In this document: piece by piece, positions 5,754 through 64,000 of the stretch
Layout of the letters: each line of letters begins with the position of its first letter
Position numbering within the stretch: position 1 is the stretch's first letter
Assembly: GCA_963969365.1 (NCBI GenBank)
Contig: OZ017759.1
Coordinates: 1,178,001 to 1,242,000, forward strand
Direction of reading: 5' to 3'
Length of the DNA: 64,000 nucleotides
Origin: Asterochloris sp. CNOR1
Taxonomy: Eukaryota > Chlorophyta > Trebouxiophyceae > Trebouxiales > Trebouxiaceae
Program-made: the position numbers and the translations under genes
Notes under the pieces: generated by a model
Database searches by the model: none
What the model was told of the DNA's origin: nothing
The model's input: the letters and a program-made list of their open reading frames with translations, nothing else

Positions 5754-8700
5754 ATGGTCGGCAACAAGCCATACAAAGGCAGGAAATCGGGTTCCAAGCA
5801 GTCCAAGTCCAAGCTCAAGAGTGATGGGAACCCCATGGATGTCTATGAGGCAGAGGAGCAGGAGCCAGAGGAGCACCGCAAAGCTGGGCAGCGCTACGAT
5901 GTGAGAAGTCCAGCAGCAATTTGGCAAATTGAGCACATTTTCTGACAGGCAGGCTGCTATCATTCACGGCATTGCCAGGTGGCTCCATGACTTCTACTGT
6001 CTGCTTTCTGCTGCCTGCAGAGGGTAGACAACTATGAGTATGAGCTGCCGTCGGACTTTGAGGATGAGGAAATTGATGAAGATGAAGCCTTTGGACCAGA
6101 TGATGATGTCAAGCTTGGCCACCTGCTGGGCAGCAAGCGCAAGGGGAAGCATCTGGCCGCAGGCGATGCTCCAGCAGAGCCTGCGGCAGAGGACACAGGT
6201 GACACAGCCCTGCGCTTCAGTGCAGGCGCGCCGATGCCAGCTGCAGTGGCGTTCAAGGGCAGATGATGCCTCCAGCTTCATGACTGCTTCCTGGCACATC
6301 TCCCAATCGTGCCTGTGCATCTAGTGCTGCGCACACCCTGTGGCATATACTCACATTCACATCTGTCCGCTTGACACACAGTTTTTCCGGGTTCCACAGG
6401 CTCTGAGAGCGAAGAGGCAGGGCTGTTGGAGAGCAGTGACGAAGATCTGGAGGCTGCTGGCATGGAGGCAGTGGACCCTGACGACCTATCTGAGGATGTG
6501 GGTTCCTGACATTGCTGTATGCCCTCTGCAGGAGTTCTGCCCTGTCCTGCTGGGCTCTTGCAGTCTTGCATTTTGCAGGCAAGAGATTGCCGGTGACACG
6601 GAGTCAACAGGGTCCCCTCAGTGGCCTATCTGATGATGTGAGGTGCTGGCAGGCCAGTGCCTGTCTACTGGTTTGGGAATGGGAGTGTTGGCAGCTGTGC
6701 ACGCTGTCTTGTGGCGTCATTGCAGGCAGGCTGGTGTGGCTTTTCACATCAGAGCTGCAGGTGTGCACAGCATAACTGCCGTCCTGTCTCATGAGCGCTC
6801 TGCTTGCCCAGGAATTGGGCCCTGACAGTCTGCTGCTGTGCATGATTGTGAAAGCTGACAGGCTGTTGAAGTATGACATGCGTCTCAGGGTGTTGAGCTC
6901 CCTGACCATTGTTGCCCTGCTCAGTTGTCACCAGGACTGCTAATACAGTGTGGGTGCGGCCAGTCGGGGTGTGGCTTTGCACGCTTGAGCTGGGAAGGCA
7001 GGCAATGCTGCGTGAGCCAGCCAGTGGCAACAGCCTGTGCTGCAGCTCTCAAGACCTCTGGCCTGGTGCCCTGCTGCTGCATGCTGCAGGATGCAGGGTA
7101 TGTTTTGCGCGTCGGGATTCATGCTTAGAGGCAGCACTACCTGCTTTGCGGTGTTGCTCTCGCTTTGTGATGTGCGGCCCTACTGCATGCTGCAGGAGGC
7201 AGAGCGTCTCTTTGGAGTAGCCCGCCCCGGCAGCATGCGCAGCCACGACCAGGCTGGGCCGAGCAAAAGCGACACTGGAGGCCAGCCTGGCGACGCTGAC
7301 CTGTTGGATATGGCAGAGGGCCTGCCAGGTTCAGAGGACGGCGAGGAAACTACAGCCATGGCCACAGACAGCGGCAGCGGTGGGACAGGTGCGCTCAAGG
7401 CCCTGCCAGACCTCTAGAGGCGTATGCAGTCCGTGGTGTGTTGGGAGCAGCGCATCACTAAATGTTTGCTAGCCGCATAGCTCAGTCTGCTTTCAGGTCT
7501 AGACAGCAAGTACTGCTGCTGCTGGCCACAAGCATTGGTAGCAAGGAACGCTGGGGACTGTGCACAGCTCAATGTCAGCTGTCAAGTCAATAATTGACTA
7601 TCCTCATGCATTCAAAATCTGCTGCAGATTCAGAGGGTGTTGACGAGGAGGCCCATGCTGGCCTGCTAGCAGATGTGCGGGCAGAGCTGCGGGGCAAGGG
7701 GGCGAAGCGCAAGGCCCACCTCATTTCAGAGGCCTACCCAGAGTCAGAGTACAACCTGCAGCCCGCAGGTGGGGTGGCAGTGGCTGCTGCAGTGGCCTTA
7801 ACTGCTGTTGGCTGCTGCCTCACTGGATGCTGCGACACCAGAGAAAGGCGTGAATGCATTCGATGTGGTGTCGTCTGACATATGCATCTTATTGTGCTGG
7901 CCATAGCTGCCCTGCCTAGAGGCCCTCCCAGAGTCAGAGTGTGATCTGCAGTTTGCAGGCATCAGACTCCCCTTGGGTGCCGCAGGAAGTCGGCTGTGGT
8001 GCATGAGCATGCTGCCCACTGCAGAGTCTGCATCCCCAATAACCAGCCTATGAGGATGTGTCGACGGGCTGAACAGCACTCTGGCGGTGGTACTTGTCTC
8101 CTGCTGCCACCAGCAGACGCGTGCCCCTTGCTGCTCGCCCTCTGCTGCTGTGAATCTCATGAGCCTCGCTGATCGCTGCCCTGTGCTGACTGCGCCCATC
8201 ATGCATGCTGCCCACGGCGCAGGCACCCTGCACACGACAGCACAGCGTCACACTCCACACATGCCTCCAGGTTGCTGGGGGATCAGCTCACACGTATACG
8301 GGCTGCACGGCCTCCACGCTGTCCCTGCTCCGCTTTGCAGGCGCAGAGGGTCAGCTCAGCATCGCCGACCTCGTCAGGGGCTTGGGGGACCAGCGTGCCC
8401 GCCTGGGGCCTGCCCGCAAAACCCTGGAGCGGCTAGCCCGAAAGGCTGAGCCGGTGGCTCCCCCACTGCCGGGGCCTGTGCAGCGCAGGCAGGAGCGCCG
8501 CGCTGGCTACGAGCATGCCAAAGAGGATGTCGCTAAATGGCGGGGCATTGTCAAGGTAATGGAAGGCCCGCAGTGCTTGAGGAGCAGGCTTGTGGCCTGA
8601 GGTCGCAGTGGGTTTGCATGAGGGCCAGGCATGGCCAAGAGCATGGGCATCCACTTCCCCCCGGGACTCAAAAATGCACAATTGCCTCAATCATGGTTGA

Positions 8701-11700
8701 GAGCGCCGCATTGGCTATGAGCATGCCAAGGAGGGTATTGCTAACTGGCATGGCATTGTCAAGGTGTGGCACCATGCTGTCTGCATCACCCGATCTGGCC
8801 AAAGTCTGTGTCAGCAATGTGCTGGGAACATGCCAAGGGAAATCTGACTGAGTGGCAGAGCATTGTCAAGGAGCCTTTGGGCTCTGCACTTGTATAGCGT
8901 CATGAAGGCAGTGCTGTTCAGGCTTGCTGCTTGGCTCCTGTGTTTGCTGCCTGGCAGAGGGCAGGGCACTATGGTCCAGAAGCTACTGAATGGGCATGAA
9001 GTTCATCATCTAATAAAGCTGGCAGAAGTCTGCACCACTTGATGAAACTCCATGCACTAGCACTGCTGATCCTTGATCACCAATGCCTAGCAAGCAAGGA
9101 GTGTCAGACCTTGCGCATCAACTTGGGGCACCAGCAAGCTGCAGGAAGTTCTGCTGGAATGGCGTCAGCACATTGTTGAAGAGCACAAGCATGTTCATGT
9201 GCAGCCGGACAAATGGCAAATTGATAAATGCTTTAAGGTGCAAGTGGTTGCAAAGAAAAGCACCCTCATGTTCTTTGCATACCTTTGGACAACCAGTTTG
9301 CAATCCCTGCAGAGCAAGTGCTATCCCTTGCCTAATGCTGGCTGCAGATGCGGCCAACACTGTCCAACAGGCGGCAGCATCCCTCAAACAACCTTGAGTG
9401 CCAGGCATGCCCCTGAGCAGGTCAATGGCGAGGCACCCCACTTTGCTCTGCATGTGGTGACACCAAGCAGCAGCTCCTAAGCAACAGGCATGCCTCTTTG
9501 CAGGCAAACAGGGAGGCCCCAACCCTGCACTTCAAGTCAGGGGCGGAGGATGTTCCCCGCACGAATAGCACAGCTGCGCTGGCAGCCAAGTTCGCCCCTG
9601 AGGCTGGCTTGGAGGCAGAGGTGGCCGCCATGCTGGCTGCTGCAGGGGCCAGCAACGCAGAGGCGCTGGCGGAGGCCGAGGAGTCTTTGGCGCTCAATGT
9701 AAGCCCCACAAAGTATATGTAAGCAGCAAAGGGGTGTCCAATGCGAGACTTCAGAGTCAGCAGTGAGGGGGCGCTGGTGTGTCAAGATGGGCTCTCTTCT
9801 TTCCTGTTTGGCCCTGCCCTTGGGATTGGGTGCAGGCGCAAGATCTGAGTCTCTCACACTGTGACACGTACTGACTCCAGATAACTTATACATGGAGGGT
9901 CGAATAAGAGAGAGGCTCCTGGCGCATAGCGGTGGACCATAGGGACAGCGGCCGCAAAGATTTGGTGCTCAGCGCGCTTTCTGCTGCTTTTTGGATGGAT
10001 GGATGATGGCACCCAATGCAGGCTTCCAGCTGTCTTCTGCTCCAAACAAGCCCTGCAGCGCTCAGTGTAGCCCGTTGCTTAGTGCCTCACGGTAGCCATG
10101 GCGTTTGGGTGCGCAGCCTGGGTCCTTTGCCCAGCTGTGGCATTGCTTTTGGTTGCTCAGGCTTGGTCATCTGTCCACTGGTGCTCTGCACTGAGCATTG
10201 CTTCTGAGTGCTCAGCATGGGGCTTCAGCTCACCTAGCCTGAGGCTTGTGCTCAGCTGTCCCTGCTCTGTGAGTTGCTGTTGGGACCTGAACAAGGATAT
10301 CTCAGCTGTGCCCTGCTCTGTGCATTCTGGTTGGATGCTCAGCAGCATGGGACTTTTGCCCTTCTGTGACCTGTTTTGGGTGTTGGGCAGTTCGCAGGTA
10401 CTGCACATCTCCGTATGCAATGCAGGTGGCACGTGTTCCCCCATAGCCATTGTCTGTGACTCTGGGCATTAGAAATATACTGCTGCTCACAGCCATGGGG
10501 GCTCCATTGCACTTCCTGTGACGTGACTGGCTGCTGGGCAAGGATGAGAATTGCTGTGATCATGAGTGCAGCCCTTGCTGCCTGATTAACGCAAAACATC
10601 ACGATTGGGTAATTCTGAGCCCCACAGTCACACCAGTATTGTCCCTTTCAGCGTGTCGTGAAAGCAAGGTGCTGTTGTCTGCCTGGGCTGCCTTGGCCGC
10701 TCTGCAGCACAAGCAGCTTGTGGCAGGCCTGCTCACATAGGGACATCACATCCCTTGCACCGCATTCAAAAAACTTAGTTGCGAGCATCTGTCTCTGCTC
10801 ATGGAAGACATGAGACTGAGAGGGCAACAGCAATGGGACATTCTGTGAAGCTTGACCTGCTTGACGAGTACTCAAAATAGGCTCTTCATGCAGGCAATGT
10901 CTGTGTTTGGGGTTCAGGCGCGTCTGCTACCTTTACTAGCTGCCTGTCCATGTGCAGGCCACCGGTGTGGATGAGGCTGACGGGATGCAGACTGTCATCC
11001 TGCATAAATGGAGGGCTGACTGCCTGTAAGCAGGAGGCCAATGGGGGACGACTCAGTCCTCTGAAGTTTTTGCAGACGTCTGTCTTGGGAGCTGTGCAGG
11101 CCATGTCTGTGGAGGAGGCCAAGGAAAGGCGGGACCGCCTGGCTCGCATGCGCAACCTGCTGTTCTACCATGAGCAGAAGGCCAAGCGCGCGAAGGCCAT
11201 CAAGAGCAGGGACTACCATCGCCACGCCAAGAAGGCTGCCAAAACGAAGGTGGGTACAGGGGCTGATCTTGGGAATGGGAGCATGAATCTGTCTGGGCAC
11301 CCTTGTGCCTTCCATAGCCATTGGCTGGACGTAGCTTGCCATGAGTTCAGGTTGATGAATCAGGCAGGGAGGAGGTCTGCTGTGTGTCTTTTGTGCTGAG
11401 GAAAGAAGAGTTGACATGATGGACCTGGGGATGAAGGAAGCCATGAGCAGCTGAGGCGTATGGTGAGGCCTGCATGCGACACCTCACCAGTGCCAATGTT
11501 CAGCAGCTGATGAGCATAATGGGGTCTTCCACCAGTCTTACCAACCTTCCATAGGCAGTGAAGGGAGGTTCTTCATGAACTTCAAGCCACAATCCCACCA
11601 CAACCAGTGGGCTTCTCAATGGGCTGCGAGTCCTGCAGTTGCGTCATGCAGGCGCACCAGGCAGCTGTGCACGTGATTGCAGATTCTGCTGGGCCTGCCT

Positions 11701-14700
11701 TGCGCCATGCATGCTTATCAAATTTGTTGTGTCTCTGTCTGCCTGACCCAGTAATTGTGCAGTGCAGGCCTAGCAATCAGGTGCAGGCTTTGGGCAGGTT
11801 CTGCAATGCAGCATCATCTGAAAAGCCCTCAGCTGTGCTCTGCAGGCCCGTAAGGCAGGCGAGGCAAACGAGGAGGACTTTCTCAGACTGGCCGCAGAGG
11901 ATGCAGAGCTCTCCCGTGCCCGCGAGCGCCTGACGCTCAAGCATCGCAATAGCAGTCGATGGGCGCGGCGGGCGCTGCGGCGGGGGGTGGACGTCATGGA
12001 CCCGGGAACCAAGGCTGCTCTGGAGGAGCAACTCAGGCTGGGGGAGCAGCTCAGGCGCAAGGTGGGCAGAGGAGGCACTATTCAGCCTGTAGACCACGCT
12101 GGTAAGCACTAAGGCACAAATTGACAGCAATTTTAATGAGAAAATGGCCCGGACATGGCGAGGAAGGCAGCTGTATAGGAGACAACCTGAGGGTCGGGGG
12201 GCAGCTCAGAAGGCTCAGGTGGACTACTGCTTGTGAGGGTCAGGTGTACCTGGCTGTGGCAAATGGCGGCGCAGGCCGAGGACTGAAGGTCTGCTGTCTG
12301 GCTTGCTTGGTAGGAATGAGGCCTGGCTTGGTGGACCCAGGGATGAAGGCATCTGTTGGTGAGTTGCTGAGGCAGAAGGTAGGGTCAGCCTGCGAACCAT
12401 GGATGTGCCCCAGTGTCAACCTGTTTTCAATGCAAGGGCAGTTGCTTTGCAGGCCTGGACTGTAGTGGGAGCGTCTTAGCAATGTGCCACCATTGGGTCA
12501 TGTTGACAAATTGGGCGACCTTCCAGCTCCATACATGTCTCATGCAGGTGGACAAGATGGGTGACAAGAGCGGCTCAGATGATGAGACGAGCAGCTCGTC
12601 TGCTGCAGACGCTGACAGCAATGCTGGAGATGGGCAGGGCGCAGCAGCAGGGCAGCAAAATGCGCGAGCAGCATCCGCCAGAGCCCAAGCTGCCGCACTA
12701 GCAGTTCTTGAGGGTGAGGCCCCTTGATGTGTGGCATGGCAGCCTGGTTTGACCAGTGAGGCCCCCTCTCCCCCCCCCCCCTCCCTCCTAAGCCTCTTGA
12801 TGGGACACTACTGAGAGCTCAGCACAGCTCTTGCCGCCCTGATGCAGGGCAGTTACAAGCAGACGTTGGCATCCAACATTGGCACGTTTTTGCTTCGCAG
12901 CGGTGCCATTACTGCTCGCTTTGTGGCTGCAGGCCAGGATGGGGTTGAAGTGCCCAAGAAGGGCCTGTTCAGCCTGCCCTTCATGGAGCGAGCCATGGAA
13001 CGCAGGAAGCAGCAGGCTCACAGGGAAGCGCTTGAGCTGCTCAAGGCGAGTGGGGCTTTATGTTTTATGAGCAGGGTATTGCATGAGTAGGCAGGGTGAG
13101 GCCTCAGCAAGCTGTTAGACATCGAGTGGAGCTGTTGGAAATGGAGACATGGCAGGGTAGTGCCTTCTGCCCATGTACGGATGGGCAGACTCATACTGCA
13201 TTTGCCCATGCAGCTGCCTTCTGCCCAAATGTGCATGCTGCCAATGGCATCTGCTGCTTGTGCCTCCAGAGGCCTGCTCAGCATTGCACCAGCAAACCTG
13301 TCCCTCATGGAAGTGCAGCTGCTGCTGTCCCAGACATGGAGCAAGACTCACTGCTGCAGACTGCCATCTTCACATGGTTCAGGCTGGCAGCTGCATGTCC
13401 AGGTGTGGGGCACTCAGCACGTGTTCCCCTGCAGGAAATGGAGCGCGAGGATGCTGCTGCAGATGGCAGGCTACCTGACAACAGCAACGCAGAGCCTGCA
13501 GATGAGGAGCCGAGTGGGGCCGGACGCTTCAGCTTTGGCATGAACCAGCAGGTCAGCACTAACAAGCTGGGTGGATGTGGCAAATGGCAGATGTGATGCC
13601 TGACAATCGCAGTGCTGGGTTGACTGATGAGGAGCCAAGTGGGGCTGATTTCCGTCACCATTGGTACCGCTCGCAAGTCAGCAGCTGGACAGTGCTTTGC
13701 TGTCCTTTGCATTTGCCTTGCGCATGCCGAGCGTTGTGCTGATGCATACAAAAGCACCGCCTGCACGTGTCCCTGCCAACCTCTTTTGCAAAGTGCTGGC
13801 TCGAGCCAATCACAATTGCAGACGGCACATCTAGCATGAATCTGAGCCTGCTGTTGTTGCCTGGCACAGGCCAAGCAGCTCTCTCAGAGCTTGTGGGTTG
13901 TGCAGCACCATGCAGCAAGTCGGCAACAGAGTTGTCATGCCTCATATTGTCTCACTCAGGAAATAATCACCAATTCACACTCATCTTGACTTGCGAACAC
14001 TGGTCGGAGACAGCTCAGAGGGGGAGGGCACTTTCGGGCCAGGTACAGTACACGCTGACGCCATTGCTCTTACCTGCACGCACAAATTGGCAGCAGATCA
14101 AGGGCATCAGTGTCTCAGAGGCAGAGGAATTGTGGGCTCTGGCAGCACCTGCTGGCCCCAGCTGGCGACAGCTTGAGAAGGGCCAGCACCTCAGACGCAG
14201 AAGGGCTGGGGGCCTGCAGTCATCAGTTACTTGCAGGCACCGTCTGAAGACAGCTCAGGAGAAGGCAGCACTCCAAACGCAGATGTGTCCGCGCCAGTAT
14301 TGGAAGCGCAGATGCGCCGGCGCCAAAATTGGATGCACTGCAGTTTGACACTCCACAACTTCCTGCAGGCACTGGCTGGAGACAGGTCAGACGGGGAGTC
14401 TGCCTCTGAAGCAGATGAGCACGAGGATGCAGAGGCCAAGGCTGAGCGACTGGGGCGGCAGCTGCAACGCCAGCAGGCACGAGCTGGCCAGAACAAAGCT
14501 CCTGCAGCGGGGGCCAGCAATGTAGGAACTGCAGCAAAGCAAAAAAAGCAGAAGGGGCGGAAGCGGAAGGTGGGCCATTTCTAAACAACTGAATAGATTG
14601 GTGGCTGGACTTTCCGCAGTGCAAACATCCTAAAACCTTGCAAGCTGTTGCTGTCAGTGTGGTACCTGGCCGTCCCCCATCGTGATGCCTGCTATACGGA

Positions 14701-17700
14701 GCGCAGAGCCACAGCTTGTGCAGGTAAAGTACCACCAGCAGACAGCAGGGTTGCAGGCCCAATGGCTTCCCCTCTGCATCGCACCTCTCCCGTTTTGTGG
14801 GGGAGATCTGGCAGCATGACAGTGGCACACTTGTCTGCAGCCAGCTGGCTCTATTCTTGCCCCAAATGATGGAAATCCACAGGCGGGGCCTGCTCATCAG
14901 ATCCTCTCTGACATCAGGCAACATACTTCTGGCCCCCATCAAGTTCCTGTTTGCCAGCTTCTGGCCGTTGCCAGTGTGTCCAGCATGGCAAGCTCAGGGC
15001 ATGTGGGTGCCAATCGCAGAGGGCCACAGGTACACAAGTAGTGCCACTCATCTGCCAGAAATAACAGAATCTTGATGTTCAAAACATGTGTCTTGTAGGC
15101 AGCACAGCAGGAGGAGGAGCAAGTAGACTTGGCCCAGCACGCTGTGGCCACTGCTGGACCTGTCAGTGTGGAGGCACCTGCTGGCCGCAGCACTCCTGCA
15201 GCAGCAACTGCCATCCCATGTGCGGTCGAAACAGGTGAGGCAGACACCAGTCTCTGTGGGGGCCCAGGGGCCACCAGCTTAGCATCAGGAACACAGAGAC
15301 TTGGGAGCTGCCCAGGGATGGTGTTGCTATATAACCCAAAAGCTCTCAGGGACGGTGTTGATATCATATGCTATATAACCCAAAAGCTCCCAGGCAGCTG
15401 ATTACATATCCAATCCTTGTGCTGCTGTCAGAGACAGGCAGCAGGGCAGCGCAGCAGGGCACCCCTCTTGTGCAAAGCAAGGGAACTGGGTTGCACCTGC
15501 TGCAATAGTGCTGCAGAGACACTGTGCTGCAATACAGCCTGCACTTTGCCAGCGCTGGGATTCCATACCGCATTTTTGGGCCAGTCAGCTGGTCCATGGC
15601 AGCCCATTCATGCTGCCCCAATCAGGTGTGAGTTCAAGCAAAATCCATGCAGGCCAGAACCTGCAGTGGCAGCAAGGCGAGACCCTCCCCCTCATGCTCT
15701 TGTCTTCCTGCTGCTATGCAGGTGCCGCCAAGACTCCAGTGCACTCTTCTGGAGCGTTGCAGACCTTGCAAGATGTGGTTCAGCAGCGCAGCAGCCGGGC
15801 CTATCTCTTCAATCCCACCTGCGTCACCCAGACGGCGCGCCAGGCGCAGCCTGCTGCCGAGACAGATGTCTGCCCAGTCAATGCATTTGAGGGGCCCCGC
15901 CCTGGCTGGGCCTTCCAGGCTGGCCCCAGAGGCCAGGGCTACTACAAGGACGCCTCAGCCAGCATGGGGACTGACAAGAAGAGCAAGCGCAGGAAGAAGG
16001 CTGAGAGCCAATCAGGCCCCTCCCGCGGGGAGGTGGCGGTTGCTGGGGCTGCTGCAGCACCTGCCCAGGCAGCTGGCAGTGTTGGAGTTGTGGCTGGGGC
16101 TGGAGGGGGGGCTGGGGCTGGGGCTGGCGGTATCGCTGCCTCACAGGCAGCTCAAAAGGCTGCTGGGCCTGCAGCCAATGGAGGGGCCACTGCTGGCCAG
16201 CTTGTTGCAGCTGACAGCCCTGGCTCCGGGTCAGAGGAGGAGCAGAATCCCATGCAACCTGTGCAAGGTGAGCTCTTCAGACATACATGCCCTGGGCAGC
16301 ACAGTCATCCTGTCTTACACTCAGGCTAAGTGCAGATCAAACCCTGGCCATGCCTCATCCCTGGCTTGGAAGCGGCCAACTGGCCCCTCAAGAGGCGGCT
16401 GATGAAGGCGTGGTAGCGCAGCCACGCAGCCCAACATGCTGATGTGCGCCTGTGGCCCTGCCAAGAGTGTCCCTCGCAAGAGTTCTGATCAAATGCCAAT
16501 GCTGCCACAGAGGTGCAGGTAGTTGGCGTTGCTGCCGCATCTAGAAGGCTTCATACCCATTTTCTGTTATTGGATTGCAGGGGCGCGGCTGAGTCAAAGA
16601 GAGCTCATTGCCAGGGCTTTTGCTGCCGACGATGTGGAGGCAGACTTTGCCGCCGAGAAGGCAGCAGACACAGAGCAGGAGCTGCCCTCAGGTGGGGTTG
16701 GCCCCTCCAGCAAGTGCTCAGCCAGCTGGGCCTCCACTTTGGCCTTTGCCTGCCACAACATGCGCCGAGAAGGCTGGGCAGAGCGCATTTCGGGTTCAGG
16801 CAAAACCTCCACCTGTTGCCTGGTTTGGCAAGATCACATCCAGTTATTGAGAGATCTGAGTTTGAGCGCTTGTCTGGCTTGTGCCAGGTGTCGCAGTGCC
16901 TTGCCTTGGCCATGCACAGTTCCCTACCTGGCTGCACTGGTGTCAGGGCCCTGACCATTTGAAGGCGTGGCCGGTTGCCCGTTCGGGTGCAGATGTGCAT
17001 GCCAAACTGTATGCCTGAGATGGTGGCGCTCTGCCTGCAGCTGAGGCTGACACCGTCCTGCCTGGCTGGGGCCAGTGGGCGGGGCAACAGCATGAGCCGC
17101 GGTGGATGCGCGAGGCCAGAGCGAAGGCTCAAAAGTGAGGCCTGGAAGTTGCTGCCTTGATTGGTTTAGCTGACCAAACACAAGTGCCATGCTTGTTCTG
17201 CTGTCCTTGTAGCTGCAAGGCGTTGCGGGCTCTGCATGTGGAACACCACCACCTCACCTTCCCTGCTGCCGCTGCACCTTTACCTGCTCAGCATCCTCTG
17301 CAATGCCGCTTCCAGTTCACCACTTAGCTGCTGGATGCGGAAGTCCCAAGTGAAGGCTCAGGAGCAAGGACTGAGCAGTCTGCTGCCTTGGCATGATGTG
17401 CTGGCAAGACTGTCGAGGCCGTGCTGCAATCGGATGCCCCTTTGTGCCACTTTGCCAGGCTGTTGTCTCATGCTGTCGAGAACTCAAATGGTGCTGCTGT
17501 CGCTGCAAAGCCATGGTGGCAGCTGCAGGCTCCTCCAAGGAAGCCAAGCGCATGTCGGCATCCTTCATGCACTGATCTGCTGTGAGGTGTGCTGAAAGGA
17601 CTGCAGGCCCAAGGAAGCAGCTCGAGCATTGTGAAGGGATGCAAAGCTGAGATCATCAATCTTGTATCAGCATATTCATGTGCTAGTGAATGACAACCGG

Positions 17701-28215: not shown

Positions 28216-28384
28216 GCCGGCAGCAGCAGTGGGGAGAAGCAGTAGATGCAATTCTGGTTCCAGGCCACCAGTGCAAGCGTGGCAGATTGGCCTCTGCTGC
28301 ATAGAAGGATTGCCTGCAGCGCTGAGCAGGCAAGTCAGAAGCTATTGGGGGCTGCACAAGGTTCTCAGTACCGTAACATTTGCT
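28216..28384. other. Probable Argonaute 5' region
   Basis: The Argonaute frame stays open a little upstream of the Met I chose (to about 28302), so the true first exon may start here or further up. No further domain is visible. Confidence 0.35.
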
Positions 28385-32862: not shown

Positions 32863-34020
32863 GGCTGGCTCTCGGAGAAACACCAGCGATGGCTTCCCCC
32901 TGGCCCAGGACTCCCCCATGGCGCTGCCAAAGGCCACTATTTTTGAGGATGCTGATGGAGAGGACACCTCCTTCTTTGGGTTCTCAGAAAGGGAGAGGAG
33001 GGCAGAGGAGGATGCCATGACTGCCCAGCTGCAGTCCATTGGCGTCACTGTGATGGACGAAGGTCTGTCCTGTGCTTCTGGCCAGCAGGTGCACACAACA
33101 GTGGCAACCACGGGGGAGGACAGTCTGCAGGCGTGAAGCAGGGTGTTTGGGCACCATTCCTGCCGACAGCTGCCATGCCTGCCCAGTGACAGTCTGTTGG
33201 CATGCACTGTGGTAGAGATTGTTTGTGGCCAGCAACAGAGGATCAAGCGTCAGGCCAGCAACACAGATTACCCAGCAGATAAGTTTATCTGCTGGCGGCA
33301 GCATGGGAGAGAAGAGTGCGAAGGCGTGGACCAGGGTTACGTGTAGCAGCCTACAGCTGCTGGCCTACCCAGTGACAGTGAAAAGAGATGAGAGCTTGAG
33401 CCCCACCCAGAAAGCACCAGCAGCCTCCAGGCGCACATCAACTCCCCAGCAGCCTTGAGCTGCATCCTCACCCACTGCATGGAGATGGGACGCCTGGTGC
33501 TCTGCTGTCTCGTCGCATGTACCTGCAGCTCTGTGCAGCCCCTTGAAGTTCAGCAGCATTCTCAGGAGCTCTGCAGCAGGCCATGCAGATGATGGTAGCC
33601 CAGCGCGCTGCAGCCTCAGCCATTGCAAAGAGGAGTGTCAGTTGTGGGCAACATGGCATGGGTTGACAGCTGCTCAAGAACCAATTTGTGCGTCCTGCAG
33701 GGTCCATAGGTCAGATACCGGCAGCTTTCCCAGTCCAGCAGCCCATAGCAGCTGACTTGCCCAGCCACCTGGTGAGCACCTGCCTCCCATGACTTTGCAC
33801 TGCCTGGACCTGGAAAGCTTTTTAATGGTGCCATATTATACCTCTGTGTGTGCACATCCTGCAGAAGATCAGAGCATCCCAGACAAATCTGGCGAAGCCC
33901 AGAGGGTCCAGAGTGTCCAGTGGGGGTGACTCAACGGTGGGGCCATGGTCCAGCGATGCAGACTCGCGTCCCGCCAGGCAGCAGGGCACAACAAGGCGCC
34001 CAAGGCAGACTCTCAATTGA
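32863..34020 (+). CDS. Unidentified gene, partial model
   Basis: Two exon-like segments look coding. The first, 32863-33062, reads MALPKATIFEDADGEDTSFF, then GFSERERRAEEDAMTAQLQS and IGVTVMDE, an acidic, helical sequence between a good acceptor and a weaker donor. The last, 33865-34020, follows a TGCAG acceptor and encodes a Ser/Arg-rich end (KIRASQTNLAKP, then RPARQQGTTRRPRQTLN and stop). A TGTAA signal lies 43 bases after that stop. A possible middle exon near 33592 reads MMVAQRAAASAIAKR. I do not recognise the protein and could not join all pieces in phase; the 5' end is unknown. Confidence 0.42.
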
Positions 34021-55000: not shown

Positions 55001-58000
55001 CCACATCCAAGGCAGCGTGGTTCTGGATGCAGTACATCACGCGAGCCCGCGTCAGGGCCAGCAGGCGTGGCATGGCGCCGCTTTCCCCCTGCAACAAAGA
55101 GGTGACAAAGCAGCTTTCTAGGAGAAACGGGGCCTTCCAGTAGTCCTGGCAGCAGAGCAACATGGCAGTCTGCAGGGAGGGGAAGCAGTCCCAGCAGGTG
55201 ACATAGGCCTGCAAAGCAGGCAACACTGGGGCAGCAGGCCTCAGCTTTTGCTGTGGCACCATGCATTGGGCTGGGCTCTCTGCAACTGCCTCCTGAAGAG
55301 GCCTGCACACAGGGACTGCAGAGCTGCATTACCATGCAGCTGGTGAAACATCTGCAGGGTTTGGTGTGTTTCCAGTTCAACTAGTTGGTCAGCATCCAGC
55401 CTGAGGCGCAGCCTGGTGCATGCATATAGCATGCCTCTGAAGTTAGTGAGTTCAGTTCTTGCAGCTTTCTTACCCCCCTCCACATGGGATTAAGCTATGC
55501 GCTACAGGTCCAAAGGAGGTGGAGGCGGGCGCCAGCAGCGCTGTGTTCCTCATATATGGGTATTCCAGCAGAAGGGGATGCACTGCAGGGCTGTGGGAGC
55601 CCACCTGCTGCCCTTAAGGGGGGCCGCGCAGGCAACAGTGCATCAAGCAATCTTAAGTGCAGCCATACAGTGCGGCTCAGCTGCAGCCTCATGGCCTGGA
55701 GGATGATGCTGGCAACATCTCAATATGTCTCTGAATCACAGTGACCACGCAACAAAAGTGCTGAGACCACACCTGCCGCCCCAGTGTTTGGAGGAGGGCG
55801 CTGGCGGCATTGCGTGCCTCGAGGGGTCCCCGCTTCAGGTTGTTGCCCAGAAGCTCCTCGATTGCCCCTGCCTTGACAAAAGAGGTGGCGCAGGCTGTCG
55901 GGCCAGCACGAGCCACCAGCATCAGGCAGGGCAGCAGGCCACCCAGAAAGAGATGTGCATACCTGCAGGGCAGGGAGCAGGCTGACATGCATTGCTTCAG
56001 GAGCCTCGCAGTCAGGGTAGCAGGTCGCACAGGAAGAGATGTGAGGGTATGAAGAGGGGTCTCAACAAGGCTGCCAGGTGAGGCATGGCAGGCCATACGA
56101 CACCCTCTCAGGCAGGAGGTGTGTGTGGCTGCAGGGTCAGCAGTCAGCCAAAAGATCAGTTGCCTGCTGGGCGGGCGCTGCCTAAGTCGTCCACACAGTG
56201 TGAGACCATATGCAGGCAGCCTGCCAGGTCTGCTTTGAGGACATAACAGCCTAGCATGATCAGGAGCCACACGACAGGTTGCACGTGAGTTTCAAGAATG
56301 GCCGTGCTCTTTGCAAGCTTGCCTGCTGGGCACCCCACCCATGCTTGGACGCAGTCTTTGCAGATGACAACGATTCCTGTACTTTCAGGCTCAGTTATGA
56401 ACCCGCCACCAGCACTCAGGTGTAGCCTCTTGCAGGTAGTCATGCCCAACCAGTGTTTGGGGGGGGGCAGTCTATGGGCAGCACTGTTGCCGTTACCTGC
56501 TGAGGTACCATCACACAAGCACAGGGAACGCTCACGCCAGACCATCAGGCCAGTCAGTTCCCCTGTGATCACCACAATTGAGTGTGTCGCCACCACAATT
56601 CGGAACCCCTCAGCAGCTGCTGGGCATGACCTGTAGTCCTGCGTGGGGGCCACAGCCAGTGCCACCTCTCCAAGTTGCTGCTGCGCGGCGCCGCCCTGCT
56701 GCTTCAGGTAGCGAGCCAGCGAGGCACGCAGGCCAGCTAGTGCCAGAGTTGAGTGTGCCACTGCAGCATGGGCGGGCCTGCACTTGTCCACATAGGCGCT
56801 CCCTAGTGCTGCCACCGCCCGATTCACACCCTTGGCTGCTGTTGGTGCTGCCACAGCCCCAGCATCTGCAGAGGGCGCAGCTTCAGCCGCCCCAGCTGTG
56901 GTCTCCTGCTCGGAGGGTGCTGCTGCCTCCTGCCGAGGTGCCTGGCCCTGCCAAACGCGCAGGGCAGTCTCCACGGGCCTGCAGCGGGCACAGCCCAGTT
57001 GCCATATGTGGGCCACAGTAGCAGCAGGCTTGTGCTTAAAGCTTGATCTGCCCCCTGCTGAGGTGCGTGACACTGAAAGATGCACAGGACGGTCTTGATA
57101 GGCCTGCCGCGGCGTCAAAAGCGTCTAGGGAATGCTGCCTCCTGATGCGGCCCATCATTCTGCCAAATGCACAGGGCAGTCTCAACAGCCCTGCAAGGCT
57201 CAGCCGCTAATCCCACACAGCTGCCAGGGTGCCATGCACATATTTGGCAAGTGAAGGGGGGGGGGGGGGGGGGGGGTACAGGTGCTTGCAGGCTGCATCC
57301 CTATGTCCTCTGGTTGGGTCAGTTGCCGCACAAGCCCCAGGGCACAGCATTGTTTGCAGACTCTCTCAGCAGTAGGAAGCAAGGGCAGCGCAAATTTGGG
57401 GCAGCCTGGCGCTCTCTGCCTTCAGTGACAGACACAGAGCGGTTTCACTGACATGACTGGCACATGACTCACTTGGCGGTGGAGGCGAGGGCAGCGCGCG
57501 TGCGCTGCAGGCTGTCGCTCTCCAGCTCCAGGAAGCCCAGGGCTCGTTGCATGTCATCCTCACTCCTGATGGTTGGCCAGGCAGTGCAGGGAGCCGCCAG
57601 AACGGTGAAGTCCAGGCGTCCAAAACGGCAGTGGCCGCACTCGTTGCACAGGAAGGCATCAAGGTCCTCATAGTTGATGTTCCTGCAGCAGACCTTGATG
57701 ATGTTGTTGCTGCTTAGCTACTTTGCAGTCAAAGCTTGTGCTGTTTGCCATGGATGGTCCATCAGAGGTCCTCTGCCTGGCTGGACCGAAAAGCATGCCA
57801 GTCTGTGTTGGGAGTGATGCCAGCGCATACTGACAAGGGCTTGACAGGTCATGTGATACGGCAAATGTTGCATCGTGCAATGCAACACAGGTCCCGCACA
57901 CATGTTGACCCTTGCTGTGGAAAGAATACTGGTTGTAAGAGCGAGAAGAAAGGCCTGGGGCCCAAGGTTGTCTGGCACTGGACGAGGCCATGGCAGACTG

Positions 58001-61000
58001 AGTGGTTCTGGCAACCGATGGAACGGGCGTGTCACGAAAGGCACTGCTGATGAGCGGCCTCTTACCTTGACAAAGGGGCAACATGTCTCAGCTGCCTTGC
58101 AGCAAAGCAGATGCTATCAGCCAGGCAATACTGAAGGCCTCTGCCCAGCTTGGACTGCAGCAAGGCTGCAAGGGGCGACCCATGCAATGGGCGGCCGCCG
58201 CCGCCTGGCTGCCAGACCAAAAATGCAGATATAGAATATGCTGCTGCGCATGAGACCACCCTGCAGCAGAACTACCTGCACTGGCAGGTGTGCCTGTGGC
58301 AGGAGCGGCAAGCCCCACCAGAATCTTCCTCCTGGTTTGCTCACCCAGCACCCTGGCTCCAGCAATCCTGCCTCCAGCTTGTACTCATTCACATAAGCGG
58401 CTCAGCAAGCCCAGCTAGCCCCCCTCAGCTCAAGGTAGCCCCTCACCGACAATGCCTGCACTGGTATGCGTTCTCGTGGCAGTAGCGGCAGACCCCAAAG
58501 GGGTCCGTCACCAGCTGGTTGCACCGTGGGCACTGCAGGACCTCAGCGCTGGCCTCAGACAGGTTGTCCCAGAAGTCTGTGAGCTCCACCATGAGGCAGG
58601 CTGCAGGGATGGGCAGGGGAAAGCTGTGCCGAGCATCGACCTGGTAGGGCTTCAGAGTCATTGTGGCAGCCTGCAGGCCAGGAAGCAGACAGAGCTCAAT
58701 GGCAGCCTACATGAAGCTGGCAGGGCGGGATGGCAGCCTGCAGAAGTTCTCTGAGTCCATTAGGGACTCGCAGGGGGAACCTCTGCCGTGTGGCAAGCTA
58801 GTATGGCAACAGATCTGGTGATGCCGGCCTGCATGCCACAGCAAAGGGAGAGCAGTTCACCCTGCGGTGGCCGAGGCAGTATGGAGGGACACTGCATCTC
58901 CAGGCGAGGCCTTCGATGGTCTGTCAGTGTGGGCTGTCAACCACCTGAGTCAGTTCCGTCCAAGGAGGCAGAACAGCACCATCAGGCGGCACACTGCAGG
59001 CAGAGCGAAGTCACCTGCTGCCAAAGGTCTGACCGCGTCTTGAGCTCAGACAGCTCGGACACAGGGTGGGCGCAGAAGTGAACCTTCAGGCGCCGCACCA
59101 TGCGCGCTTTCTTCAGCGAGTGCACCCTCAGCGTCAGGCTCCTGCACGCCAGCACGGTGAATGACTGCCGGGAACAGCTTTGCATGTGCTGATGGCAGCT
59201 GGGAAGGGGGCTTAGGGCACTTCATGCATCAGGCTCCTGTCAGGCAGCACGGCGGGGAGCATCTGACGTGCATGTCAAGGTGCTGATGGGCTGAGGGGGA
59301 TAGTGTCACCAGATGGTCTGCAGCATGGGCATGGGCTCAGCACAGTGCGCCTCTTCTCTAGCACGGATCTGCTCAACAAGAGTTTGCAGGGTGAGGTGGC
59401 AGATTTTTGTGATGGCTCTTCTGAGATGCATGTTAGCCTTCACGGTGCTCGTGAAAAGCTTCTGCATGCTCTTGCACGACACCCAACAAGCGTGGAAGCT
59501 ATCCACTGTGAGGGCCAGCATAGACAGCATACAGCGGGCTTAAAATCGCTGAGGCAGCCTGAGGGTGGCCAGCAGCAGGCAGCAGAACGTCGCGATGCCA
59601 GACAGCTTGCTTAGTGGCCAGCAGAACACTCACACAAAGAGATAGGGCTGTGGCTTACTTGAGGTAGTATGTGCTAGAGAGACGGACGGTGATCCGGCTC
59701 CCGCTGTACTTCACTTCAGCCTCCAGGCTCTCCAGGCGAGAGGAAGCAAACTTGCGCTCAGGCTGCAGGCTGCCCTGAGGCGCTGGCGCTTCAAGCAGGC
59801 ACTCTGGGCAGTCTGTGAGCTTCTGCAGGGCAGGGACGGCATCTGAGTCAGCTTCCGGGCTGCATGTGGCATGTGTGAGATGCAAGCTTTTATGCTGCTG
59901 GGCAGACGAGGGTCTCAGAGCCGACCAGCAATAGCTGACTGCCAGGCATAACTTTGCTTTCCATCAAGAGGGCAGGGCAGGCAGCCATTTTCTGACTGTG
60001 ACATGTCCTCTAATAAGCTGAGGGGTCCCAGATGTGACTCAGCAATGTCTGCCTGGCAGGCAAGCAGGCCCTGAACAGCTGTCTGTGCGCTGCAGCGGGG
60101 CAGGGAGGTCGGGGTGACCGTGACAGGCAACGTAGCCAGCGTATTGCACAAGCGGCAGGGCTGGCCAGAGATGGACAACATTATGTGCATGCCCTGAGTA
60201 ATCCTGCTGGCAGCCCACAGGGGCCACCCGGGATGTCAGGCTGACTCATGGTCAGCGCCCTGCAGTCTGCAGCAGTCACCTCAGTGAGGCCCTTGTGCTT
60301 AGGACTTGCTCAGCATTGCAGGGGCCATGTGCTGGGAGCAGGCTCACCAACAGCAGGCTGCTGATGCAGAGCAGCGTGCCCATGGTGCATGCAGCCTCAC
60401 CTCCAACAGGCTGTAGGCTCTCGTGCTAGGGAGTTTCACGGCATTGTACAGTGCCTATGCATTGGGCAAAGTCACCTTGGGCAAGCCCACCTTCAGCAGA
60501 GGTGCTGCTTGGGCACCACCACAGGACTGCAAGGCCAGCCACTGATGACCTCACCTCCAGCAGGCTGTAGTCCCTCGCGTGGGGATGGTCACACAGCACA
60601 GCATTGTGATCCCGCAGCGCCTGAAGCATGCTGGGCAGCACTTCGGGCCACAACTCCTTCACCAGGCACCCAACCCCGGAGGTTTTGAGCGACAGGGTCT
60701 CGGCCTTGCGCTTGGCGTCCTCGGGGGCTGAGCGGGACGGCGTGGACCGTGCGGAGCCCAATCCCTCCCCCTGCGGCGTGCTGGTGCCTGCAGGATGCAG
60801 GCATTGTTCACACAGGTACTCCAGGAAAGGAGCAAAGCGGGTCAGGTTGGTCCATGTGAAGCACGTCTCCACTCCCGTTGGCCACCTGGTGCCTGCAGGG
60901 ACTGGAGCATGCCTCCAGATTTAGGCAGGGCAGGGACATCTGTGCAGAGCCTGGCCCCTTTCCCCTGTGACCCTGTGGTAACTGCACCAGACCACAGCGT

Positions 61001-64000
61001 GACTCAGCAGGGGTCATGTGGCCATGCAGTGCCTGAGCTTTTGCCATGCAACTAGTGGGCACCTGCAGTGCCAGGACAATATGCCAGAGTCGTGTGATGG
61101 GCTAGAATGGCCGGTGCAGGGCCTGGCCCATCTCCCTCTGGCCTTGTGGAGCCCAACTGGGACAGATGCAGTGTTCAGAGGGCCTAGCGGGTGTCTGCAA
61201 GAGGTGAGCTGGGCAGGCTGGCCCATGCTGAGCTGACCCCTCTGCCCCTGCGAACAGCTGATGCTCGACTGCCGATGCTGTTGAGGATACCGTCACTGTC
61301 GAAAAGCAGGCATGCCTGATCGAAGGGTCTGCAGCTACTGAGCTGTCACCAGGGCTGGCAGGGACAACATCTGTGGACATGGAAACCAAGCGACTTCAAC
61401 AAGAGGGCCCAACAAACCACCTCTGGCAGGAAGCTCACCTGCAGCCCTGCTGCCTGCATTGCTGGGCGCTGTGTCGGCCTTGAGGACCCAGGTAAGGGCC
61501 TCCCAGAAGGGCCCGGCAAAGTCCCCATAGCCGCTCAGCTGAGGGGCCAGCCGTAGCAGCAGTCTGAGCAGCCCCGACAATACGCTGCGGGCCCAGGCAC
61601 GATGCTTGGGTGCTCCGCTGCCATCCCCCATGTGCATGGCGGCCAGGAAGAGCCAGGCACCCTTCACCAAGCTGCATGCTGCCTTCCGCAGCGCTTCAGA
61701 GGTTGCCCCCAAGCCATAGGATACAATCACATGCGCCAGCAGGCTGCTTGTCAGGCTTGGGGTTGCGGGAGCCCCAGCACCCCCTCCTGGCCCTGCAACA
61801 CCCCCTTCTGCAGTTGCAGCAGCGGCAGGGGCGGTGACCTGGCTGCTACTGCTGGATGGCGTGTCCTCACGGTGTGGTGCAGCTGCCAGCTGGGGCAGCA
61901 GCCACTCAAACCGCAGCTCCAAGGCCTTCCGGTCCAGCCTGCAATGGCAGGGCCGCACATCAGGTGATCACTCCAGACCGGCTGTTGCACACAAAGTCGA
62001 GCTCATGTAGATTTGATGTCTCAGATGGGGACCGCCGGCCCGATGACTGCAGCTGGTCAGAATGGCAGTGTGGGTTGCAGAGGCAGAGCAGTGCATGCAG
62101 CCGCTCACTTGGCAGTGGTCTGGCCAGCCTCCATCTTGGGAAGGGCGAGTGCCAGCAGCCCAGTGACAGCCTGAGCTGCAGGCTCAGACTCCCATCGCAG
62201 GCTGGCGGTGACCAGCCAGGCCATCGCGTTGTCTGCAAACATGGACAGACTCAATTTGAGTGAGGAAGACGTCAAGTGTTCTGCAGTCACAACGGTACCC
62301 ACTATGTGTCTTTCGGCATCAGGTCGGCAGTGGCCAGTCAGGCCATTGTGTTGTCTTCAGACATGACCAACCTGTTCGCACAGGCCGAGCAGACAGGCGA
62401 TGGCCAGCTAGGCCCTTGCTTTGTCTGGAATCAACAGCACCTGCTACGAAGCCACCATGACAATGCGAGACCAAGCGGCCTGCTGTCTGCCTGCAGCGGC
62501 CTGACCTCAAGGTCCCAGCTGATGATGATGATTGATGCAGGCATCAGGCAGACAGAACGCCTGCGCCCAGCAGGCTTATGAGCTGTGAACTTGCAGAAAC
62601 AGCAGTGCATATCATCATGCAGAAGGCAGCTGAAGCGTTACAGTCGCATCAAGGGTTTGTGATGGTTGTCACCTGAGTCAGCGTCTGCCAGCCACTGTTC
62701 ACAGTACTAGGGCTTCACGAGTTCACCCACCTGGGGCACCCTCCTGATCCAGCAGAAACCTGATCCAGGTCTGCACCCTGCCCTCTGCAACCTCCAGCAA
62801 TCCTGCAGCGGCCTCAGTCAGCTGGGCTTGCAGCCTGTAGGTGCCGGGCTGCTCCGTCAGGGCAGCATCCAAGTGTCGGATGACCTGCACCAGCAGGCAA
62901 GAAGCTGTGAACTGCCCCTGGCTGCTTCCGTCAGCAGCGGCTGAAGTCTTCAGGTGCCAGGCTGCTCCTGCAGCGCAGCTTTTGAGTGCCTGATGACTGA
63001 AGGTGATCGCAGCAGCTTTTGCATTGTGAGCCAATACAGGTGCATTGCAAGACACTGCAGATTGCATGCTTATGGGGGGCAGTGTCAGGAGGCTGCTTGG
63101 CCAAACATGCAGGAAAGAAGTGGCAGGCAAGAATGGGGCACTGCCCTCAAGCACTGATAGAGTGAGCCAAGATGCCGGTGCATGTGTGTCAAGAGGCGGC
63201 AAGGGGTGCTGGCCTACCAGGTCATGATGCCCTTTTAAGTGGTGCAGCCAATCTGGCGCGTCTATCATTTGGGCGGGATGTGAGCAATGATGACAACACA
63301 CCTGCAGGATTCTGATCAACAGCCCTGATCAACACATGAGGAGGTCTAACCTGCAGCTTCTGCTGGATGCGGAACATCGTCTTGGCATTGCGGTACCCGC
63401 TGTGGCGCCCACACAGGGCGTTCAGCAGCTTGCGGCAGGGCTTGCGTGCCTTGCTCAGAGCGTCACAGTGCAGCACCTTGAACAGAGCCTGCTCCCAGGC
63501 GACACGCTCAGTGTCTGCAGAAACAGGAGTTGCTCAGATGGGGCACAGTGCAGCACTTTAGCCACAGCCTCTAGCTTCTGGGTGGCTGCGCTCAGCCTAT
63601 ACATGCAGCAGCAACCCCGTGCTCAAGCACGATAGTGCAGCATTTCTCTGGCAATATGTGCTCAGAGTCCATGCAGCAGACTGAGAGACTCGAAGTGTGA
63701 CTTTTGGCATGTGAAAGCAGTGAAAGCTGTGATTCACTGGCACACAAAGCATAGTTGCATTAATCTTTTATGCATTGCTGCCTAAAGCACAACAGGAGAA
63801 GAGCATACAAGTATTACGTCAGGCCTATCTGCACTGCTGATCAAGCCAGATTTGCAATGTTTGAACACCCACCGCTGAGCAGCTGGCCGCCCAAGGAGTC
63901 AGCAATGCATGCTGCAACGTGCAGCGCCGCTGTGACGGCCACCAACGGCTGCCCTTGAGCACCGCCTGGACTGGCCAGCAGGTGATCCTTCTCCAACTTG
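40087..64000 (-). CDS. BIG: BIG/UBR4 giant E3 ligase, C-terminal part
   Basis: Homologue of plant BIG (about 5100 aa, auxin transport, light and defence) and animal UBR4, an N-degron-pathway E3. The gene enters from the right edge, so the N-terminal half, including any UBR box, is outside. Landmarks in gene order: ARKPCRKLLNALCG (63.4 kb), FASSRLESLEAEVKYSGSRI (59.7 kb), LRVHSLKKARMVRRLKV (59.1 kb), the Cys-rich CPRC module (58.6-57.5 kb), GMELLVCGNIISLNLPVRLV (49.0 kb), GEATEPITEQLRE (48.1 kb), VLPHVAHGNAAAQAALLQHY (45.4 kb), the hemi-RING CMVCKEGY module (43.3-42.3 kb), SFSDESHGGGKHSNARLL (41.3 kb) and a C-terminus ending ELDDASSLQELLDCAELLPV...DFVCHALQ with stop at 40087. The last two exons (40549 upward; 40087-40300) join in phase. 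At least 25 short exons are likely; many boundaries between 44 and 57 kb were not worked out. Confidence 0.93.
42283..43334 (-). other. BIG: Hemi-RING E3 module of BIG (two exons)
   Basis: Exon 43074-43334 encodes TAEEEPAEVTCMVCKEGY, then GSPTQLLGAYCFCRRVPV, ending GVPAGQVQ. Exon 42283-42501 continues VHCTVSHFSLIHVACHQAAR, REWEGATLRNGETLCNNLVP, VRGG. The Cys pair of CMVC, the later Cys, and the His/Cys of SHFSLIHVACH are the metal ligands expected for the UBR4-type hemi-RING. All are present, so the ligase module looks intact. Confidence 0.92.
43955..44010 (-). repeat. Copy of a BIG exon start
   Basis: Minus-strand reading LQAVCISLAAQVDLSPLLCR copies LQAVCDNLAAQADLLPLLHQ of the adjacent BIG exon (about 43800-43860), including the CTGCAG acceptor. 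Confidence 0.85.
45654..45678 (+). repeat. 25-base poly-G run
   Basis: An uninterrupted run of about 25 G in a BIG intron. On the transcript it is poly-C at the pyrimidine-rich side of an intron. The length may be unreliable in sequencing. Confidence 0.9.
48214..48350 (-). repeat. Two copies of a BIG exon start
   Basis: The BIG exon near 48090-48160 reads GEATEPITEQLREP. The intron upstream in gene order carries WEAMEPITQQLQEQ (about 48210-48255) and EVATEPIAPG (about 48310-48345). Confidence 0.82.
49063..49130 (-). repeat. Copy of a BIG exon start
   Basis: Reads AGLLADDFGIQLPVCGNID against GLVEDDFGMELLVCGNIIS in the BIG exon at about 48985-49015. It keeps the TGCAG acceptor and about 45 similar bases. 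Confidence 0.88.
53468..53543 (-). repeat. 33-bp hairpin in BIG intron
   Basis: Arms 53468-53500 and 53511-53543 are inverted copies (31 of 33 identical) separated by 10 bases. In minus-strand RNA both differences become G-U pairs, so all 33 positions pair. The core is CATCAAGCTTTGGG and its complement. It could be a small-RNA precursor, a small inverted-repeat element or a chance palindromic duplication. Confidence 0.9.
53733..53805 (-). repeat. Copy of a BIG exon end
   Basis: Minus-strand QQLWRLPSISRHPGAFHLSQ matches QQLQSLHSISNHPGVFHPRQ at about 53842-53910. Both are followed by GTCAGT, a donor-like sequence. Confidence 0.83.
57045..57240 (-). repeat. Two copies of a BIG exon start
   Basis: The BIG exon near 56935-56990 starts CRPVETALRVWQGQAPRQEA after TGCAG. 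The intron upstream in gene order has CRAVETALCIWQNDGPHQEA (about 57140-57200) after a TTGCAG acceptor, and GRPIKTVLCIFQCHAPQQG (about 57047-57105). Confidence 0.88.
57256..57276 (+). repeat. 21-base poly-G run
   Basis: A second long G homopolymer in a BIG intron, just beyond the exon copies at 57.05-57.24 kb. Confidence 0.9.
57473..58670 (-). other. BIG: Cys-rich (MYND-like) module of BIG
   Basis: Exon 58447-58670 encodes MVELTDFWDNLSEASAEVLQ, CPRCNQLVTDPFGVCRYCHE, NAYQCRHC. Exon 57473-57682 continues NINYEDLDAFLCNECGHCRF then GRLDF. The split codon gives an Arg as in plant BIG. Eight or more Cys in CxxC pairs align with the CPRC...CRNINYE...CNECGY segment conserved from plants to animals. 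Both splice sites and the phase fit. Confidence 0.93.
62322..62430 (-). repeat. Copies of a BIG exon
   Basis: Minus-strand MSEDNTMA, stop, LATAD at about 62322-62365 mirrors the exon MFADNAMAWLVTAS at about 62200-62245. A second trace (DKARA, stop, LAIA) lies at about 62395-62430. In both the Trp codon has become a stop. Confidence 0.75.
62935..63005 (-). repeat. Copy of a BIG exon start
   Basis: Minus-strand VIRHSKAALQEQPGT, stop, RLQPLLTEAARG matches VIRHLDAALTEQPGTYRLQA, QLTEAAAG of the exon at about 62800-62885. One Tyr codon is now a stop; the rest stays in frame. Confidence 0.88.

What the first reader, a model, noticed from the sequence alone, without database searches (positions are those of the whole stretch)
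6401..63005. Exon echoes: introns filled with decayed copies of the adjacent exon
In UTP14, the ankyrin gene, the 280-aa gene and BIG (with a possible case in Argonaute), introns hold copies of a neighbouring exon end, usually 40-80 bases, often with the 3' splice site and sometimes the donor. At least twelve clear cases lie on both strands in unrelated genes. Most keep the reading frame, with changes that leave hydrophobic or charged character similar. This is not a transposon signature, since each echo matches only its own neighbour. It suggests a genome-wide habit of small tandem duplications of exon plus flank, which would both lengthen introns and supply alternative exons. I know of no description of this as a general mode of intron growth in algae.
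Basis: partly seen in the sequence, partly recalled or inferred. Interest (0 to 1): 0.9.

Follow-up and report, generated by a model that had tools for sequence, protein, structure and literature searches.

The report
Introns hold decayed exon-edge tandem duplicates
In this stretch of what is probably a green alga's nuclear genome, over a quarter of the introns carry a worn copy of the edge of the exon next door, apparently left by old tandem duplications of roughly 80-210 bases; the copies look like debris rather than spare exons, but they show one way in which introns grow.

Summary
With my own gene models (97 exons of 50 nt or more, 87 introns), 28 of 174 exon edges have a copy in the adjoining intron at score 18 or more; expected 0.28 with swapped introns and 0.4 with shuffled introns. 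They lie in 25 of 87 introns. In 28 of 28 exon-intron pairs the acceptor-side echo lies upstream and the donor-side echo downstream.

Best reading: small tandem duplications across a splice site (spacing 84-122 nt in 14 of 25 pairs, 146-212 in 11), with the exon copy held by selection and the intron copy rotting. Echoes keep the splice dinucleotide in 12 of 25 but show no coding constraint. The same spacing occurs within introns (15 clusters against 0.3; about five are echo-to-echo) and weakly between genes (three places), so the process is not exon-specific. Simulations fit only old duplications, and the drop of similarity just inside the intron is sharper than any setting reproduced.

Observation confirmed; tandem duplication supported; alternative exons not supported. 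Known process; unusual density, size and registration. One window, unnamed organism.

The parts
5754..18322 (+). UTP14 gene (own model), 5 of 18 introns with an echo
   Evidence: HMM model; Pfam Utp14 1.7e-84; counts
7918..7958 (+). donor-edge echo of exon end 7728-7768, lag 190
8701..8763 (+). donor-edge echo of exon end 8493-8555, lag 208, 84% over 63 nt, GT kept
8821..8870 (+). second echo of the same exon end, lag 315
12151..12209 (+). donor-edge echo of 11998-12054, lag 153
13580..13645 (+). donor-edge echo of 13459-13520, lag 121
13998..14026 (+). acceptor-edge echo of 14370-14398, lag 372; further copy 14237-14285, lag 132
17510..17562 (+). acceptor-edge echo of 17714-17767, lag 204; further copy 17609-17655, lag 106
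33171..33216 (+). donor-edge echo of 33013-33057 in the ankyrin gene, lag 158
38408..38442 (+). acceptor-edge echo of 38835-38870 in the 280-aa gene, lag 427; further copy 38517-38595, lag 312
40087..64000 (-). BIG/UBR4-like gene (own model, open at the window end), 18 of 40 introns with an echo
   Evidence: Pfam UBR4 5.6e-11; closest solved chain named auxin transport protein BIG, 2e-42; counts
41506..41555 (-). acceptor-edge echo, exon edge 41456, lag 119
42962..43006 (-). donor-edge echo, exon edge 43074, lag 113, GT kept
43950..43997 (-). acceptor-edge echo, exon edge 43851, lag 146; intronic flank also homologous (z 2.9); weaker copy 44063-44084
47855..47910 (-). donor-edge echo, exon edge 48028, lag 182
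48209..48253 (-). acceptor-edge echo, exon edge 48160, lag 97; intronic flank clearly homologous (z 5.2)
49063..49112 (-). acceptor-edge echo, exon edge 49017, lag 95, 84% over 50 nt, AG kept; flank not homologous in register (z -0.06)
51336..51382 (-). acceptor-edge echo, exon edge 51286, lag 102; weaker copies 51454-51499 and 51701-51744
51981..52007 (-). donor-edge echo, exon edge 52081, lag 117, GT kept, flank homologous (z 2.4)
52907..52934 (-). acceptor-edge echo, exon edge 52864, lag 89
53735..53830 (-). donor-edge echo, exon edge 53851, lag 115, 95 nt of exon, GT kept
56009..56043 (-). acceptor-edge echo, exon edge 55962, lag 86
57020..57095 (-). acceptor-edge echo, exon edge 56978, lag 125; further copy 57133-57186, lag 212
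57375..57425 (-). donor-edge echo, exon edge 57473, lag 106
58282..58317 (-). donor-edge echo, exon edge 58462, lag 180, GT kept
58762..58813 (-). acceptor-edge echo, exon edge 58670, lag 157; weaker copy 58958-59000
60401..60498 (-). donor-edge echo, exon edge 60555, lag 166, GT kept
60829..60892 (-). acceptor-edge echo, exon edge 60787, lag 105 (score 16); the higher-scoring match for this edge is 61181-61264, lag 477
62320..62354 (-). acceptor-edge echo, exon edge 62232, lag 122, AG kept; further copy 62389-62424, lag 192
62921..62997 (-). acceptor-edge echo, exon edge 62884, lag 113, 77 nt gap-free at 73%
63530..63595 (-). acceptor-edge echo, exon edge 63514, lag 84

Best explanation
Shown: exon edges are copied, in direct orientation, into the adjoining intron, mostly 84-212 nt away, often with the splice dinucleotide; the copies carry no sign of coding constraint. 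Inferred: each echo is one copy of a small tandem duplication whose unit straddled an exon-intron boundary. Splicing kept using the outer splice site that leaves the protein unchanged, so the inner copy of exon plus splice site became intron. Selection held the exon copy; the echo decayed by substitution and indels, and the duplicated intronic flank faded faster because both its copies drifted. Repeated rounds at one edge gave arrays of two or three echoes. Each event lengthened the intron by one unit. The process also acts inside introns; exons only make it visible. The molecular source (for example fill-in of staggered breaks followed by end joining) is a guess from the literature.
For: 28 of 174 edges against 0.28-0.43 expected and 0.4 shuffled. 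28 of 28 exon-intron pairs (score>=22, lag<=450) have the side that tandem duplication demands. Reverse complement 0 of 87 twice. Splice dinucleotide at the matching place in 12 of 25 (7 of 12 GT, 5 of 13 AG) against 6.3% of random intron places. Intronic flanks more alike than random: mean z 0.55, SE 0.2, n 25; 3 of 25 above 2; an exon-only copying model (one parameter set) reached that mean in 0 of 2000 resamples. Neutral echoes: codon positions 0.217/0.195/0.270, 6 stops against 7.8 simulated. Same spacing inside introns: 15 clusters at lag 80-130 against 0.33. No clear excess between exon pairs at lag 80-130 with the stricter windows (6 against 1.4 and 0 against 1.5 at 18 of 24; 0 and 1 at 25 of 40). 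10 of 28 edges have two or more copies.
Against: Similarity drops to background within about 10 nt of the splice site (0.58, 0.35, then 0.25 at 11-20 nt); none of ten simulated settings gave both the observed exon identity (0.69) and so low a flank (lowest comparable 0.31-0.38). 22 of 25 flanks are individually below z 2.5. Tandem duplication fits only if nearly all events are old (0.3-0.4 substitutions per site with indels); young or evenly aged events are rejected, and no pair above 91% identity was seen outside the minisatellite, which needs a past burst or collapse of young repeats in the assembly. Even ages predict exon-intron to intron-intron about 0.85 against 36 (plus 3 partial) to 6 seen. 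Argonaute has 0 of 14. Intron-intron DNA also has excess at lags 20-80, so the size is not exclusive.
Confidence: 0.75

Rival explanations
1. Copying of the exon edge alone, bounded by the splice site: by templated filler synthesis at breaks or an RNA-linked route, so that no intronic flank was ever duplicated.
For: Step of similarity at the splice site; most flanks individually at background.
Against: Mean flank z 0.55 and clear flank homology at 48160, 43851 and 52080; the exon-only model gives mean z -0.15, 0 of 2000 resamples reaching the observed (one parameter set); fixed side, fixed orientation and a narrow range of spacing are not demanded by it.
Confidence: 0.12
2. Functional alternative or mutually exclusive exons kept by selection.
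For: 15 of 25 blocks gap-free, 11 of them also stop-free; 12 of 25 keep a splice dinucleotide.
Against: Mostly parts of exons, with one edge only; flat codon positions, stops as in neutral simulation, 19 of 23 gaps not multiples of three.
Confidence: 0.05
3. Intron gain by tandem duplication of an exonic AGGT segment: the intron itself is the duplicate.
For: The same class of mutation; documented elsewhere.
Against: That model puts the copy of the downstream exon start at the intron's 5' end and makes spacing equal intron length; here echoes sit beside their own exon in introns of 255-1377 nt with spacing mostly 84-212; the short introns listed (63-135 nt) show no score above 13.
Confidence: 0.03
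4. Tandem duplicates in which exon-to-echo gene conversion refreshes the echo but not its flank.
For: Would explain flank similarity fading faster than neutral simulations.
Against: No direct evidence; not tested. Flat codon-position pattern needs no conversion.
Confidence: 0.04

Closest known systems
Small tandem duplications from double-strand-break repair (PMC8355091, passages read; Vaughn and Bennetzen 2014 on rice not held, known only as cited)
   Same: Short, direct, adjacent duplications independent of sequence repeats, found across species.
   Different: That paper speaks of short (<100 bp) insertions; here spacing clusters at 84-122 and 146-212 nt and the copies are old. Junctions are too worn to test the mechanism.
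[quoted passage not shown] Gao and Lynch 2009 not held, recalled)
   Same: Tandem duplications inside genes that include intron end and exon start; the potato case carries 3' splice signals along, with another 83-bp duplication inside an intron.
   Different: There a new intron arises; here an existing intron is lengthened and the copy dies in it.
Tandem exon duplications and degenerate intronic exon copies (PMC9013439 passages; Exonize PMC12343006 passages and Results section)
   Same: Exon homology found in neighbouring introns; Exonize is built to detect degenerate exons there.
   Different: Here the copies are exon edges, densely packed, in register with one splice site, and without coding constraint.
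Repair-mediated proximal duplications in vertebrates (PMC2671141, passages read)
   Same: Local copies (median 147 bp) that sometimes include partial exon/intron.
   Different: Those are non-tandem by definition (copies within 50 bp excluded) and average 1.2 kb apart; one cited exon copy is inverted. Here no inverted exon copies at score>=20.
Introners (PMC9860276, passages read)
   Same: A source of intron DNA found in algae among others.
   Different: Introners share sequence across unrelated introns; echoes do not.

Membership tests
Small tandem duplication | Two copies in direct orientation close together | tested here: met
   reverse complement 0 of 87 twice
Small tandem duplication | Homology runs over the whole unit, intronic part included | tested here: inconclusive
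   Mean z 0.55 (n 25), three clear pairs, most at background; fits old duplications in simulation but step sharper than simulated
Small tandem duplication | Junction with little or no microhomology or repair scar | not testable with these tools
   Copies too diverged
Functional tandem or mutually exclusive exon | Coding constraint on the copy | tested here: not met
Functional tandem or mutually exclusive exon | Copy is spliced into mRNA | not testable with these tools
   No RNA data
Intron gain by AGGT tandem duplication | Spacing equals intron length; copy of the downstream exon start at the intron's 5' end | tested here: not met
Introner | Similar sequence shared by introns of unrelated genes | tested here: not met
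   within this window of 87 introns only
Repair-mediated proximal capture | Non-tandem placement | tested here: inconclusive
   Clustered spacing and fixed side argue for tandem, but full-unit homology is not shown for most pairs

The most novel reading that the evidence does not exclude
In this algal lineage a tandem-duplication process with a preferred unit near 80-130 bases (and near 200) is a main source of intron DNA: it lengthens introns unit by unit, and exon edges act as frozen references that let one count and date the events long after ordinary intron duplicates have become unreadable.
Probability: 0.35. Interest if true: 0.75.

Novelty: new variant of a known kind. Interest (0 to 1): 0.6.

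Why it matters
Long introns of compact green algal genomes lack an agreed cause: the Chlamydomonas comparative paper (PMC8226300, passages read) reports median introns of 198-343 bp without the usual 60-110 bp peak and says that whatever drives intron length is likely ancient. Echoes give a direct, countable trace of one cause. Because the exon copy is nearly fixed, an echo also records neutral change since a dated event inside the same gene. The window has not been shown to come from that group.

Tried and rejected
Chance or low complexity: rejected by swapped, permuted, length-controlled and shuffled controls. Transposon or introner: rejected within the window. Coding echoes: rejected. Exon-specific process: weakened, because intron-intron clusters share the spacing (15 at lag 80-130 against 0.33; about 5 of the 15 lie between two echoes of one edge). 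Intergenic support: one search had counted the gene at 1-1391 as intergenic; with 1-1500 dropped, four clusters at three places remain at lag 80-130 (2053, 27071-27091, 35095), and these may lie in unannotated gene parts, so it is weak. A lower bound on spacing set by splicing: considered because exon-intron pairs lack lags 50-80 (10 against 19 expected) while intron-intron DNA does not; left open.

Dropped before counting: 53 of 150 predicted coding segments of about 50 nt or less; the minisatellite at 21070-21330; pairs at lag 300 or more and scores under 18 (25 of the 30 pairs kept); scores under 20 as well (20 pairs). In one search many printed alignments are self-matches of overlapping flanks and mean nothing; only its position lines are used. 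Of six intron-intron pairs, two are echo-to-echo and one (430/526) looks like an echo of an exon start that my model missed (by eye). Gene models are from a home-made HMM with gene spans and seed exons set by hand from reading; no RNA or protein alignment backs single exon borders. Failed: timed out; too few genes; too many tiny exons.

Full report
Observation. A self-comparison of the window gave 11 pairs at E<1e-3, all direct and 95-212 bases apart, two of them in a minisatellite. With that minisatellite masked, matches at fixed lag peak at 80-129 (298 windows) and 190-219 (107), against 0.16 per ten lags in the background. The repeat finder lists many of the same pairs; it finds four local inverted pairs of 22 nt or more within 400 bases, one a strong hairpin. 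My BLAST script dropped self-palindromic hits, so its zero count of nearby inverted pairs (score 18 or more) is not complete; the exon-to-intron reverse-complement test (0 of 87 twice) does not have that flaw.

Gene models. I trained a small HMM on hand-picked seed exons within gene spans set from reading. Pfam supports UTP14 (1.7e-84), Argonaute (Piwi 7.8e-68), ankyrin repeats, glutaredoxin (4.3e-18) and UBR4 (5.6e-11) in the translations; the 280-aa protein and a glycosylase-like protein had no match at 0.01. 97 predicted exons of 50 nt or more define 87 introns, median 417.

Significance. At score 20, 22 of 174 near edges match their own intron, against 0.15 for shuffled introns; at score 18, 28 of 174 against 0.28 for permutations, 0.43 with length control and 0.4 shuffled. 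Far exon ends do not match when exons are long enough to separate the ends (1 and 0 of 60). Echoes sit in 25 of 87 introns, which are longer than the rest (572 against 378.5, p 9e-5). Ten of 28 edges have two or more copies. Argonaute has 0 of 14 introns with an echo (Fisher p 0.008 against the rest).

Anatomy. In 28 of 28 exon-intron pairs the echo lies on the side that a tandem duplication retaining the protein would give. In 25 pairs (score 18 or more, lag under 300) the spacing is 84-122 in 14 and 146-212 in 11, and 35-110 nt of exon are matched. The splice dinucleotide is kept in 7 of 12 donor and 5 of 13 acceptor echoes. Identity is about 0.69 over the first 25 exon bases, 0.58 in the last five intron bases, 0.35 in the next five and background beyond.

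Decay. Differences per site at codon positions 1, 2, 3 are 0.217, 0.195, 0.270; stops 6 of 407 codons against a simulated 7.8 (3-14); 4 of 23 gaps are multiples of three. The echoes decay like neutral DNA.

Mechanism. Tandem duplication should also duplicate the intronic flank. Flanks are on average more alike than random (mean z 0.55, SE 0.2), clearly so at 48160, 43851 and 52080, not at most others. In simulation this mean fits duplications 0.3-0.4 substitutions per site old with indels, rejects younger or evenly aged ones, and rejects exon-only copying under the one setting tried. No setting reproduced the sharp step fully. Even ages predict about equal exon-intron and intron-intron pairs (ratio 0.85), while 36 (plus 3 partial) to 6 were seen; old age raises the predicted ratio. 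So old duplications are the best fit, with unexplained residue; a past burst, or loss of young identical repeats in assembly, is needed.

Generality. Lag 75-219 holds 95 clusters against 4 at far lags, and 15.8% of intron bases lie in a detectable copy. Intron-intron DNA has 15 clusters at lag 80-130 against 0.33, about five of them between two echoes of one edge; intergenic support shrinks to three places after removing a gene that one search had counted as intergenic. How much intron DNA has this origin beyond the 15.8% is inference.

Origin. The closest solved chain to the BIG piece is named auxin transport protein BIG (2e-42; next UBR4 5e-33), and the Argonaute piece matches Argonaute 10 and human-type Argonaute 2 about equally (5e-63, 1e-62). 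Searches for relatives found none.

Known or new. Internal tandem duplications, new introns from them, degenerate exon copies in introns and break-repair duplications are in print. What is unusual here is the density, the preferred spacing and the registration to splice sites. The link to unexplained long introns in Chlamydomonas relatives is a suggestion.

Noticed in passing
53468-53543: Hairpin with 33-nt arms, 94% complementary, 10-nt loop, inside a BIG intron.
   Followed up: no
21085-21309: Minisatellite of GTCCAAGGCTGAGCCAGA-like units in an Argonaute intron.
   Followed up: no
3382-4867: Reads by eye like a broken reverse-transcriptase (non-LTR) element; the family search failed on a wrong reference, so this is unverified.
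   Followed up: no
360-800: A gene resembling a helix-hairpin-helix DNA glycosylase (recalled motif; no Pfam match) whose exon start near 578 seems to have echoes near 461 and 363 (by eye; pair 430/526).
   Followed up: partly
10082-10260: Intron-intron repeats with start-to-start spacing 44-55 in the long UTP14 intron (family D7).
   Followed up: no
30137-30345: Three acceptor-like copies spaced 80 and 86 before the ankyrin exon at 30327 (family D4), below my exon-only threshold.
   Followed up: no
18672-27055: Argonaute introns have no echo (0 of 14) and the region has fewer local duplicates (0.76 per kb against 1.5-2.6 in the other multi-intron genes).
   Followed up: partly
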